This document shows positions 36,488 through 39,421 of a DNA stretch of 64,000 bases, piece by piece. The notes under the pieces are model-generated. The model searched no databases, had not been told where the DNA came from, and saw only the letters and a list, made by a program, of their open reading frames with translations. The position numbers and the translations under genes were made by a program. Origin of the DNA: Streptomyces griseus subsp. griseus (lineage in GTDB: Bacteria; Actinomycetota; Actinomycetes; Streptomycetales; Streptomycetaceae); NCBI RefSeq assembly GCF_000720255.1, contig NZ_JOJE01000035.1:11382-75381 (forward strand), read 5' to 3'. How positions within the stretch are numbered: the first letter of the stretch is position 1; the number at the start of each line of letters is the position of its first letter.

Positions 36488-37729
36488 TCAGATCACTCCG
36501 TTCGACTTCAGCAGGCGCAGCTCCTCGTCGCCGAGCCCGAGCTCACCGACGTAGATCTCCTCGTTGTGCTCGCCGAGCAGCGGTGACGTGGTCACGTCGA
36601 CGGGGGAGTCGGAGAGCTTGAGCGGGCTGCCCACGGTCACGAACTCGCCGCGCTGCGGGTGGGGCACGGTCACGACCATCTCGTTGGCGACCAGCGACCG
36701 GTCCTCGATGATCTCCCTGGTGGACAGGATCGGCCCGCACGGGATGTTGTGGGCGTTGAGCCGCTCCAGCACCTCCCACTTGGGCAGCGTCGAGGACCAC
36801 TCCTCGATCAGCTGGAACATCTTGGTGAGTTTGGGCAGACGGGCCTGAGGCGTGGCCCACTCGGGGTCGTCGGCCAGCTCGGGCCGGCCGATGAGCTCGC
36901 TGATGGGCCGCCAGCCCACCGGCTGCACGATGACGTACACGTAGTCGTTGGGGCCGCCCGGCGAGCACTTGACCGCCCAGCCGGGCTGACCGCCACCGGA
37001 CGCGTTTCCCGAACGGGGAACCTCGTCGCCGAAGTCGTCGTTGGGATATTCAGCGAGCGGGCCGTGTGCCAGGCGCTGCTGGTCGCGCAGCTTCACCCGG
37101 CAGAGGTTGAGCACAGCGTGCTGCATGGCCACGTTGACCCGCTGCCCGCGCCCGGTGTGCTCCCGCTGGTAAAGCGCCGCGAGGATGCCCGCCACGGCGT
37201 GGACGCCCGTGCCCGAGTCCCCGATCTGGGCCCCCGTCGCCAGCGGCGGCCCTTCCTCGAAACCGGTGGTCGACATCGACCCGCCCATGGCCTGAGCGAC
37301 GACCTCGTACGCCTTGAAGTCGGTGTACGGACCGTCCCCGAACCCCTTGATGGAGGCATAGACGATCCGCGGATTGATCTCCTGGATGCGGTCCCAGGTG
37401 AAGCCCATACGGTCGACCGCGCCCGGTCCGAAGTTCTCGACCATGACGTCCGAGCGCCGGATCAGCTCGGTGAGGATCTCCTTGCCGCGCCTCGTCTTGG
37501 TGTTGAGGGTGATGCTCCGCTTGTTGCAGTTGAGCATCGTGAAGTAGAGGGAGTCGACGTCCGGGAGGTCGCGCAGCTGCTGGCGCGTGATGTCACCGGT
37601 CGGCGCCTCCAGCTTGATGACGTCCGCGCCGAGCCAGGCGAGCAGCTGGGTCGCGGACGGTCCGGACTGGACGTGGGTCATGTCCAGGACGCGGATCCCG
37701 TCGAGTGCCTTCGTGGGCGTTCCGGTCAT
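36488..37729 (-). CDS. frc: Formyl-CoA transferase (class III CoA transferase)
   Basis: A 413-residue class III CoA transferase that aligns along its whole length with Oxalobacter formigenes Frc as I recall it. Shared stretches include DVDSLYFTMLNCNKRSI, VMVENFGPGAVDRMGFTW, LRDQQRL and GILAALYQREHTGRGQ. The catalytic Asp is in TGAQIGDSGTGVH (near residue 170), and the mobile glycine loop is present as NASGGGQPGW. At the position of Trp48 of the Oxalobacter enzyme this protein has Gln51 (DITRQQL). The expected reaction is CoA transfer from formyl-CoA or succinyl-CoA to oxalate. It lies between the ThDP enzyme and the NDP-forming ligase in a tight leftward operon. Confidence 0.92.
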   Translation of the reverse strand: MTGTPTKALDGIRVLDMTHVQSGPSATQLLAWLGADVIKLEAPTGDITRQQLRDLPDVDSLYFTMLNCNKRSITLNTKTRRGKEILTELIRRSDVMVENFGPGAVDRMGFTWDRIQEINPRIVYASIKGFGDGPYTDFKAYEVVAQAMGGSMSTTGFEEGPPLATGAQIGDSGTGVHAVAGILAALYQREHTGRGQRVNVAMQHAVLNLCRVKLRDQQRLAHGPLAEYPNDDFGDEVPRSGNASGGGQPGWAVKCSPGGPNDYVYVIVQPVGWRPISELIGRPELADDPEWATPQARLPKLTKMFQLIEEWSSTLPKWEVLERLNAHNIPCGPILSTREIIEDRSLVANEMVVTVPHPQRGEFVTVGSPLKLSDSPVDVTTSPLLGEHNEEIYVGELGLGDEELRLLKSNGVI

Positions 37730-37738
37730 GGGGCCACC

Positions 37739-39421
37739 TCACTTGTACATCGTCTGGTTCATGGTTCCGGGGGCGTACGCGTCGGGGTCGACCCAGACGT
37801 TGATCAGCGAGGGCTTCCCGGACTCGCGGGCGCGTCGCAGCGCGGGGCCGATGTCGGCGGGGTCGCGGACCTCCTCGCCATGACCGCCCAGCATCTGGGC
37901 GAACTTGTCGTAGTGGACGTCACCGAGGGTGTTGCCGACCCGCTGGCGCTCCTGGCCGTACTTCTGGGCCTGGCCGTAGCGGATCTGGTTCATGGAGGAG
38001 TTGTTGCCGACGATGCCGACGAAGGGGAGGTCGTAGCGGACGAGGGTTTCGAAGTCCCAGCCGGTGAGGGAGAACGCCCCGTCGCCGAAGAGGGCGACGA
38101 CCTCCTTGTCGGGCCGCGCCTGCTTGGCCGCGAGCACGAACGGGACGCCGACGCCGAGGGTGCCGAGCGGCCCGGGGTCCATCCAGTGCCCGGGCGACTT
38201 GGGCTGCACGACCTGACCGGAGAAGGTGACGATGTCGCCTCCGTCGCCGATGTAGATCGAGTCCTCGGTGAGGAAGTCGTTGATCTCGCTGACCAGACGG
38301 TAGGGGTGGATCGGCGAGGCGTCCGACCGCAGGCTCGGCAGCCGCTTCTCGATCGCGGTCTGCTCGGCGGCGCGCAGCTCGTCGAGCCACTCCTTGCGCT
38401 TCGACGCACCGCCGTTGAGGCGTCCGGAGGCGGCCTCGGTCACCGACTTCAGCACCAGTCCCGCGTCACCGACGATGCCGAGGTCGATGTCGCGGTTCTT
38501 GCCCACCGTCCGGTAGTCGAGGTCGATCTGCACGACGGTCGCGTTCGGGGAGAGCCGTTTGCCGTAGCCCATCCGGAAGTCGAAGGGGGTGCCCACGATG
38601 ACGATCACGTCGGCGTTGGAGAACGCGTAGCGACGCGACAGCTGGTAGTGGTGCGGGTCGCCGGGCGGCAGCGTGCCACGGCCGGCGCCGTTCATGTACG
38701 CCGGGATGTTCAGCGTGCGCACCAGCTCGACGGCCGCCTCGGTGCCGCGGGTGGTCCAGACCTGACTGCCCAGCAGGATGGCCGGTTTCTCGGCGTGGAC
38801 GAGGAGGTCGGCGAGCTTCTCGATCGCCTCGGGGTCGCCGGGGGAGCGCGTCGAGGCGCGGTAGGCACCGGTCTTCGGCACGCGTGCCTTGGCCACCGGC
38901 ACCTTGGCGTCGAGGACGTCACGCGGGATCTCCAGGAAGGAGGGCCCGGGAGCGCCGTGGTAGCACTCGCGGAACGCCATCGACACCATGTCCGCGGCGC
39001 GGGCCGTGTCCGGCACGGCCGCAGCGAACTTGGTGATCGGCGTCATCATGTCGACGTGCGGAAGGTCCTGAAGGGACCCCATTTTGTGCTGGGTGAGGGC
39101 TCCCTGACCACCGATCAGCAGCATCGGGGACTCCGCGCGGAAGGCGTTGGCGACGCCGGTGACCGCGTCGGTCGTCCCCGGCCCCGCGGTGACGACCGCG
39201 CAACCGGGTTTGCCGGTGATGCGTGCGTAGCCGTCGGCGGCGTGGGCGGCGACCTGTTCGTGGCGTACGTCGACTACTTCTATGCCCTCGTCGACGCAGC
39301 CGTCGTAGATGTCGATGATGTGGCCGCCGCACAGCGTGTAGATGCGGTCGACCCCCTCGGCCTTCAGCGCCTTGGCAACGAGATGACCACCGGAGATGAC
39401 GTCCTGGGTGTCGTCGGGCAT
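37739..39421 (-). CDS. ThDP-dependent oxalyl-CoA decarboxylase / 2-hydroxyacyl-CoA lyase-like enzyme
   Basis: A 560-residue thiamine diphosphate enzyme with the usual three domains. The activating glutamate is Glu55 (DVRHEQVAAHAADGYAR), and the ThDP/Mg motif is FGDGAFSLTGWDFETLVRYD...NNSSMNQ. By position next to frc it should be oxalyl-CoA decarboxylase. However, the Tyr120-Glu121 pair of the Oxalobacter enzyme is Leu117-Gln118 here, inside MGSLQDLPHVD, which recalls the FQEFPQV-type segment of 2-hydroxyacyl-CoA lyases. The C-terminus DPDAYAPGTMNQTMYK also differs from the decarboxylase tail. GGGACAGGAC precedes the ATG at 39421; the frame stays open to 39610 but crosses the operator. Confidence 0.88.
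   Translation of the reverse strand: MPDDTQDVISGGHLVAKALKAEGVDRIYTLCGGHIIDIYDGCVDEGIEVVDVRHEQVAAHAADGYARITGKPGCAVVTAGPGTTDAVTGVANAFRAESPMLLIGGQGALTQHKMGSLQDLPHVDMMTPITKFAAAVPDTARAADMVSMAFRECYHGAPGPSFLEIPRDVLDAKVPVAKARVPKTGAYRASTRSPGDPEAIEKLADLLVHAEKPAILLGSQVWTTRGTEAAVELVRTLNIPAYMNGAGRGTLPPGDPHHYQLSRRYAFSNADVIVIVGTPFDFRMGYGKRLSPNATVVQIDLDYRTVGKNRDIDLGIVGDAGLVLKSVTEAASGRLNGGASKRKEWLDELRAAEQTAIEKRLPSLRSDASPIHPYRLVSEINDFLTEDSIYIGDGGDIVTFSGQVVQPKSPGHWMDPGPLGTLGVGVPFVLAAKQARPDKEVVALFGDGAFSLTGWDFETLVRYDLPFVGIVGNNSSMNQIRYGQAQKYGQERQRVGNTLGDVHYDKFAQMLGGHGEEVRDPADIGPALRRARESGKPSLINVWVDPDAYAPGTMNQTMYK

What the first reader, a model, noticed from the sequence alone, without database searches (positions are those of the whole stretch)
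36488..39421. Frc and its ThDP partner both deviate at canonical oxalate-site residues
The transferase is otherwise very close to Oxalobacter Frc but has Gln51 where that enzyme has Trp48. The ThDP enzyme has Leu117-Gln118 where oxalyl-CoA decarboxylase has the catalytic Tyr120-Glu121, and its local sequence MGSLQDLPHVD looks like 2-hydroxyacyl-CoA lyases. The pair may act on another acid, or cleave or make a 2-hydroxyacyl-CoA with formyl-CoA, rather than simply degrade oxalate.
Basis: partly seen in the sequence, partly recalled or inferred. Interest (0 to 1): 0.75.

Follow-up and report, generated by a model that had tools for sequence, protein, structure and literature searches.

The report
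Stand-in oxalate-degrading enzyme in Streptomyces
Most oxalate gene clusters of Streptomyces that we looked at lack the textbook oxalyl-CoA decarboxylase and carry a different thiamine enzyme in its place, which probably does the same job and would be missed by surveys that look only for the textbook gene.

Summary
The residues are as reported (Frc Gln51; ThDP enzyme Leu117-Gln118), but only the ThDP half is a real deviation. Gln at Frc position 48 is usual: E. coli YfdW has it, so do 11 of 11 Frc copies beside canonical OXC, and PMC10192776 gives Gln as 87.3% consensus. The ThDP enzyme passes no curated OXC, HACL or acetolactate synthase cut-off, yet its genomic behaviour points to oxalate. 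In 150 Streptomyces-genus genomes Frc occurs in 77; each of these has this enzyme (65), canonical OXC (10) or both (2), and no Frc-free genome has either. In 360 class genomes, 30 of 30 with Frc have exactly one. In nine OXC-bearing genomes the operator and Frc remain but the ThDP gene is missing from its slot; in another, with two OXC genes, it is decaying beside a normal Frc. It lacks the helix carboxylate of AcHACL and HACL2. Best reading: a second, separately derived oxalyl-CoA decarboxylase (about 0.77). Activity is untested, and the losses may be one event.

The parts
37739..39421 (-). ThDP enzyme (P0001, 560 aa), proposed alternative oxalyl-CoA decarboxylase
   Evidence: Pfam TPP_enzyme_N/M/C; none of the 25 best NCBIfam models shown reaches its cut-off; neighbour of Frc in 68 of 68 copies
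39068..39073 (-). codons of Leu117-Gln118 (OfOXC Tyr120-Glu121; AcHACL Leu127-Gln128)
   Evidence: same in 145 of 145 loci
37970..38005 (-). codons of residues 473-484 (NNSSMNQIRYGQ): active-site helix region without any Asp/Glu; Ile480 at the place of AcHACL Glu493 and OfOXC Tyr483
36488..37729 (-). Frc, formyl-CoA:oxalate CoA-transferase (413 aa)
   Evidence: TIGR03253 699.8 bits against cut-off 504.2; catalytic residues kept
37577..37579 (-). codon of Frc Gln51 (FRC Trp48; Gln in YfdW)
34339..36486 (-). ADP-forming acyl-CoA ligase, single chain (715 aa); likely primer or recycler of formyl-/oxalyl-CoA (inferred)
   Evidence: Pfam ATP-grasp_5, CoA_binding_2, Succ_CoA_lig, Ligase_CoA_2; follows ThDP-Frc in 69 of 69 full-length named loci
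32828..34216 (-). MFS transporter 1, nearest the lactate and oxalate/formate antiport MFS models
   Evidence: TIGR00890 187.9 bits, below cut-off 374.85
31408..32826 (-). MFS transporter 2, same kind
   Evidence: TIGR00890 167.7 bits, below cut-off 374.85
39475..39494 (.). inverted repeat TACAGT-N8-ACTGTA between the two divergent operons (likely operator, inferred)
   Evidence: only match in the window with up to 1 mismatch; none in 100 shuffles; in 80 of 80 named Streptomyces loci
39566..40699 (+). sucC-like succinate-CoA ligase beta
   Evidence: NF001913 over cut-off; divergent upstream in 68 of 69 full-length named loci
40710..41582 (+). sucD-like succinate-CoA ligase alpha
   Evidence: NF004230 over cut-off; 68 of 69 full-length named loci
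41806..43395 (+). aldehyde dehydrogenase-family protein
   Evidence: PF00171; 69 of 69 full-length named loci

Best explanation
The ThDP enzyme is a second, separately derived oxalyl-CoA decarboxylase. OFA-like carriers bring in oxalate; Frc moves CoA from formyl-CoA to oxalate; the ThDP enzyme attacks oxalyl-CoA, releases CO2 and gives formyl-CoA back to Frc. The ADP-forming ligase would start or top up the CoA cycle. It comes from the acetolactate-synthase/HACL side of the superfamily, so it holds the substrate with Gln118 and a carboxylate-free helix instead of Tyr120-Glu121-Tyr483-Ser553. Shown: gene identities, linkage, mutual replacement with canonical OXC, residues. Inferred: the reaction, substrate contacts, transport, the ligase's role.
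For: (1) 150 Streptomyces-genus genomes: Frc 77, this ThDP enzyme 67, canonical OXC 12. Every Frc genome has at least one (65 ThDP only, 10 OXC only, 2 both), and none of the 73 Frc-free genomes has either. 68 of 68 ThDP copies lie 16-68 bp upstream of a Frc; 10 of 13 OXC copies lie 78-183 bp upstream of one. (2) 360 class genomes: 30 Frc genomes = 25 ThDP + 5 OXC, no overlap. (3) Nine OXC-bearing genomes keep the operator and the same Frc subfamily (84-91% identical) with no ThDP gene: operator to Frc start 16-83 bp there, 1744-1811 bp in four ThDP-bearing clusters. In eight of the nine the divergent ALDH/suc side is kept at least in part; in the ninth (G234) OXC sits about 1 kb beyond the ligase. 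(4) In G174, with two canonical OXCs, the ThDP copy is 74% identical while its Frc is 90%; 63 of 377 near-invariant positions changed, against 0-15 in seven other divergent copies; dN/dS 0.276 against 0.123 for its Frc, while in nine other clusters the ThDP value is the lower one. (5) Frc keeps Gln17, Tyr59, Tyr139, Asp169 and Gly259-261 in 39 of 39 ThDP-linked and 15 of 15 ThDP-less copies aligned. (6) Gln for Glu121 and loss of Tyr120 are compatible with activity in AtOXC (PMC8004701). (7) Decarboxylation needs no proton acceptor for a C-beta hydroxyl (PMC8760513, passage), and the helix has none.
Confidence: 0.77

Rival explanations
1. It is a 2-hydroxyacyl-CoA lyase/synthase: it cleaves some 2-hydroxyacyl-CoA to formyl-CoA plus a carbonyl compound, and Frc recycles the CoA from formyl-CoA onto the next 2-hydroxyacid.
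For: Leu117-Gln118 equal Leu127-Gln128 of AcHACL, the best PDB match; Gln is the state of the HACLs tabulated (PMC8760513, PMC13327070, passages); an aldehyde dehydrogenase gene lies in the conserved neighbourhood.
Against: Score 373.4 against cut-off 600 for the AcHACL family. AcHACL Glu493 is Ile480, and the place of the HACL2 Glu one helix turn later is Gly483; residues 473-484 hold no Asp/Glu. No AMP-forming 2-hydroxyacid-CoA ligase of the HCL kind among the nine window proteins scanned. Canonical OXC would not be expected to replace a lyase, yet among Frc-bearing genomes the gene is absent or decaying only beside OXC. In eight of nine ThDP-less clusters the aldehyde dehydrogenase stays, so it is not tied to this enzyme.
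Confidence: 0.1
2. Acetolactate synthase or another 2-oxoacid carboligase, as most databases name it, that merely sits beside Frc.
For: Best NCBIfam model is PRK05858 'acetolactate synthase' (505.8 bits, cut-off 587), and many database names are acetolactate synthase; a 43% relative occurs in G010 without Frc over the cut-off.
Against: Below the cut-off of each NCBIfam model shown. A housekeeping carboligase would not occur only with Frc, nor be absent from Frc clusters where OXC is present.
Confidence: 0.05
3. Decarboxylative carboligase: oxalyl-CoA is decarboxylated and the carbanion is captured by an aldehyde (for example glyoxylate or formaldehyde), giving a C2-C3 hydroxyacyl-CoA, so that oxalate carbon is assimilated.
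For: Its nearest solved lineages include lyases/synthases and carboligases; an engineered OXC joins formyl-CoA to aldehydes (PMC8760513, passages).
Against: Replacement by canonical OXC needs only formyl-CoA formation; no conserved gene points to the acceptor aldehyde.
Confidence: 0.06

Closest known systems
Canonical oxalyl-CoA decarboxylase (TIGR03254; Oxalobacter OXC 2c31, E. coli YfdU 2q27)
   Same: ThDP superfamily fold, cofactor Glu (Glu55 = Glu56), gene directly upstream of Frc, mutual replacement across genomes
   Different: Tyr120, Glu121, Tyr483, Ser553 and Arg555 are Leu, Gln, Ile, Gly and Met; 248.7 bits against cut-off 739.4; separate clade in the tree
[quoted passage not shown] NF058623)
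   Same: Best PDB match by sequence (34-35% identity over about 540 residues in the structure alignment); Leu-Gln pair; helix motif RYxQAxxYG
   Different: No Glu493; shorter C terminus (ends where AcHACL residue 569 aligns, AcHACL having 590 residues); no 2-HIBA-CoA ligase found beside it; 373.4 bits against cut-off 600
Eukaryotic OXC / HACL1-like (Arabidopsis AtOXC)
   Same: Precedent: oxalyl-CoA decarboxylase with Phe120-Gln121 instead of Tyr-Glu (PMC8004701)
   Different: AtOXC keeps the Tyr corresponding to OXC Tyr483; works with an oxalyl-CoA synthetase (AAE3) rather than Frc
PRK05858-type 'acetolactate synthase' (G010 relative)
   Same: Closest relative outside the group found here (42-43%), same Leu-Gln
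   Different: Different helix, no MNQTMYK tail in the aligned piece, no Frc over the cut-off in its genome

Membership tests
Canonical OXC (TIGR03254) | score over the curated cut-off | tested here: not met
   248.7 against 739.4 bits
Canonical OXC (TIGR03254) | Tyr120, Glu121, Tyr483, Ser553 | tested here: not met
   Leu117, Gln118, Ile480, Gly552
Canonical OXC (TIGR03254) | ThDP-activating Glu56 | tested here: met
   Glu55, 145 of 145 loci
Canonical OXC (TIGR03254) | decarboxylates oxalyl-CoA | not testable with these tools
   needs enzyme assay
AcHACL-type 2-hydroxyacyl-CoA lyase (NF058623) | score over the curated cut-off | tested here: not met
   373.4 against 600 bits
AcHACL-type 2-hydroxyacyl-CoA lyase (NF058623) | Leu127-Gln128 | tested here: met
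   Leu117-Gln118
AcHACL-type 2-hydroxyacyl-CoA lyase (NF058623) | helix Glu493 (or the HACL2 Glu one turn later) | tested here: not met
   Ile480 and Gly483
AcHACL-type 2-hydroxyacyl-CoA lyase (NF058623) | 2-hydroxyacid-CoA ligase (HCL) in the cluster | tested here: not met
   nine window proteins around it scanned; only an ADP-forming ligase and SucCD
AcHACL-type 2-hydroxyacyl-CoA lyase (NF058623) | cleaves 2-hydroxyacyl-CoA | not testable with these tools
   needs enzyme assay
Formyl-CoA:oxalate CoA-transferase (TIGR03253) | score over the curated cut-off | tested here: met
   699.8 against 504.2 bits
Formyl-CoA:oxalate CoA-transferase (TIGR03253) | Gln17, Asp169, glycine-rich loop Gly259-Gly261 | tested here: met
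   aligned Gln, Asp171 and Gly245-247; first loop Gly258 is Ser244
Biosynthetic acetolactate synthase (TIGR00118) | score over the curated cut-off | tested here: not met
   328 against 538.35 bits

The most novel reading that the evidence does not exclude
The enzyme does more than a canonical OXC: it decarboxylates oxalyl-CoA and condenses the carbanion with an aldehyde, so that this actinobacterial cluster assimilates oxalate carbon through a one-carbon extension rather than only burning it to formate and CO2.
Probability: 0.07. Interest if true: 0.85.

Novelty: new variant of a known kind. Interest (0 to 1): 0.64.

Why it matters
Surveys of oxalate degraders count oxc (for example PMC10192776). 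Of 77 Frc-bearing genomes in the Streptomyces sample only 12 own a canonical oxc, so the oxalate capacity of these soil bacteria would be badly undercounted if the alternative enzyme works as proposed. It would be a case of one reaction served by two ThDP lineages with different substrate-binding residues, and a new natural template for formyl-CoA chemistry. Each step can be tested directly.

Tried and rejected

Counts and rows left out: the class and genus samples share five Frc genomes (G000, G057, G073, G101, G123), giving 102 distinct Frc genomes. The class cross-table was made by eye from the coordinates printed; one search lists 26 matches, and I left out the 43% relative of G010, which has no Frc. 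The two extra Frc copies of G349 were not looked at. G260 has a second, 66% Frc on a small contig without either partner. Frc rows for the tree and residue counts were those with at least 45% identity and 90% coverage; a 32% CoA-transferase beside the second OXC of G174 fell out. One ThDP row reads Met/Val at 117/118. That 3ubm is from Acetobacter and 1p5h/2c31 from Oxalobacter is recalled; the tables give only molecule names.

Full report
What is there. The window lies in a 9.89 Mb genome (G000) whose ThDP gene is nearly identical to those of named Streptomyces (95-98% in the 80 loci). On the minus strand run the ThDP enzyme (37739-39421), Frc (36488-37729), an ADP-forming acyl-CoA ligase (34339-36486) and two MFS carriers nearest the lactate and oxalate/formate models (32828-34216, 31408-32826). 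Divergently lie sucC, sucD and an aldehyde dehydrogenase (39566-43395). Between them sits a perfect inverted repeat, TACAGT-N8-ACTGTA, at 39475-39494: the only match in 64 kb with up to one mismatch, none in 100 shuffles.

The Frc half of the finding. Gln51 aligns with Trp48 of Oxalobacter FRC, but E. coli YfdW and the Frc of 3ubm also have Gln there. In my alignment 39 of 39 ThDP-linked, 15 of 15 ThDP-less and 11 of 11 OXC-linked Frc copies have Gln. Gln17, Tyr59, Tyr139, Glu140, Asp169, Gly259-261 and Gln262 are kept in all 65; Arg38 is Ala and the first loop glycine is Ser in the 54 copies of the subfamily linked to the ThDP enzyme. PMC10192776 (section 3.2 read) gives Gln as 87.3% consensus at this position. 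The protein passes the curated Frc cut-off by almost 200 bits. So there is no sign of another acid here.

The ThDP half. Leu117-Gln118 replace Tyr120-Glu121; Tyr483, Ser553 and Arg555 of OXC are Ile480, Gly552 and Met554; the cofactor Glu is kept. The best PDB match is AcHACL, but its acid/base Glu493 is Ile480. Human HACL2 has Ile at that place (PMC13327070) with a Glu one helix turn later (PMC8760513; passages); here that place is Gly483, and residues 473-484 contain no acid. No NCBIfam model shown reaches its cut-off. In a small tree of 24 rows it forms its own clade, apart from OXC; its place relative to AcHACL and the 43% relative is unresolved. The AlphaFold model (mean pLDDT 87.6) matches HACL, ALS and OXC structures about equally.

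Co-occurrence. In 150 Streptomyces-genus genomes Frc over the cut-off is in 77, the ThDP enzyme in 67, canonical OXC in 12. All 77 have one or the other (65 ThDP only, 10 OXC only, 2 both) and no genome without Frc has either. Of 94 Frc copies, 68 follow a ThDP gene at 16-68 bp, 10 follow an OXC gene at 78-183 bp, none follows both, and 16 follow neither; 15 of these 16 are in genomes with canonical OXC and one is a divergent second copy in G260. The two genomes with both enzymes have separate Frc copies for each. In 360 class genomes, 30 have Frc: 25 with the ThDP enzyme (every one adjacent, by the printed coordinates) and 5 with OXC, no overlap; 8 further genomes have OXC without Frc over the cut-off. 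Relatedness among genomes means the Fisher p-values should not be taken at face value.

Loss and decay where OXC is present. Nine OXC-bearing genomes (G101, G186, G170, G264, G280, G279, G223, G233, G234) keep the same Frc subfamily and the operator, but the ThDP gene is gone: Frc starts 16-83 bp from the operator, where it lies 1744-1811 bp away in four ThDP-bearing clusters. Eight of the nine keep carriers and some or all of the suc/ALDH genes at 77-90% identity; in five of these the ligase was not found in the fetched locus, and G234 has OXC about 1 kb beyond the ligase. G174 owns two canonical OXC genes; its ThDP copy is 74% identical to the window's while the adjacent Frc is 90%. It has changed 63 of 377 near-invariant positions, including Cys31, His34 and 7 of the 12 residues 473-484, against 0-15 in seven other divergent copies. 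Its dN/dS is 0.276 against 0.123 for its Frc, whereas in the nine other clusters compared the ThDP value is the lower one. G251, which also has OXC, still has an intact copy. The simplest reading is that OXC makes this enzyme redundant. The Frc tree asks for two or three changes, but a single loss is not rejected (p-AU 0.42), and G174 is one fragmented assembly.

Mechanism. Established knowledge: Frc makes oxalyl-CoA from formyl-CoA and oxalate, and OXC returns formyl-CoA. I infer that the ThDP enzyme fills the OXC step. Decarboxylation needs no base for a hydroxyl proton (PMC8760513, passage), which fits a helix without acids; Gln118 would hold the thioester oxygen, as Gln128 does in AcHACL. 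Arabidopsis AtOXC decarboxylates oxalyl-CoA with Phe120-Gln121 (PMC8004701, PMC9090294, abstract and passages), so Tyr-Glu is not required. Which residues hold the carboxylate is unknown; Gln479, Arg481 and the conserved tail TMNQTMYK are candidates. The ligase may prime the cycle, as proposed for YfdE in E. coli (PMC3720670, passages).

Breadth. In 69 of 69 full-length loci the order is ThDP, Frc, ligase, carrier on one strand; the operator is in 80 of 80. Outside the genus, relatives at 78-84% sit beside Frc in another family (f17), and the 120 proteins listed add Lentzea, Amycolatopsis and Streptosporangium among others, named mostly acetolactate synthase or thiamine pyrophosphate-binding protein. 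Streptomyces as oxalate users are on record (PMC7793669, passages on strain NJ10), without an enzyme named in those passages.

Verdict. Not a canonical OXC and not a proven lyase: most likely an alternative oxalyl-CoA decarboxylase. Strong comparative evidence, no biochemical proof.

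Noticed in passing
window 29798-31331: A secreted ThuA-like reading frame (family name recalled, not scanned) starts at 29798, but its recognisable part seems to stop near 30300, where a TIM-barrel (AP_endonuc_2) gene begins at 30312 in another frame; the first gene may be short or frameshifted.
   Followed up: no
window 44643-46249: A kinase-like ORF followed by a roadblock-like ORF (45848-46249) looks like a Streptomyces conservon (recalled, not tested).
   Followed up: no
L104, L109, L111-L114: OXC-bearing Streptomyces carry extra Frc copies (up to three per genome), some placed after the aldehyde dehydrogenase gene of the old cluster; in L109 the second carrier matches in two pieces.
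   Followed up: partly
L036, L037 (G082, G066): Eight class genomes have canonical OXC without any Frc over the cut-off; two of the four actinobacterial OXCs aligned have Tyr-Gln instead of Tyr-Glu.
   Followed up: partly
L120 (G260:C483:149-1369): A 66% identical, fast-evolving second Frc on a 4.8 kb contig without either decarboxylase found beside it.
   Followed up: no
L106:8288-9025: In G234 a GntR-like regulator frame (by eye) lies between the ligase and canonical OXC; it may belong to oxalate control.
   Followed up: no
Frc tree: Streptomyces hold two well separated Frc subfamilies (one with the ThDP enzyme, one with OXC), whereas PMC12188714 (passages) writes that Streptomyces acquired frc once.
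   Followed up: partly
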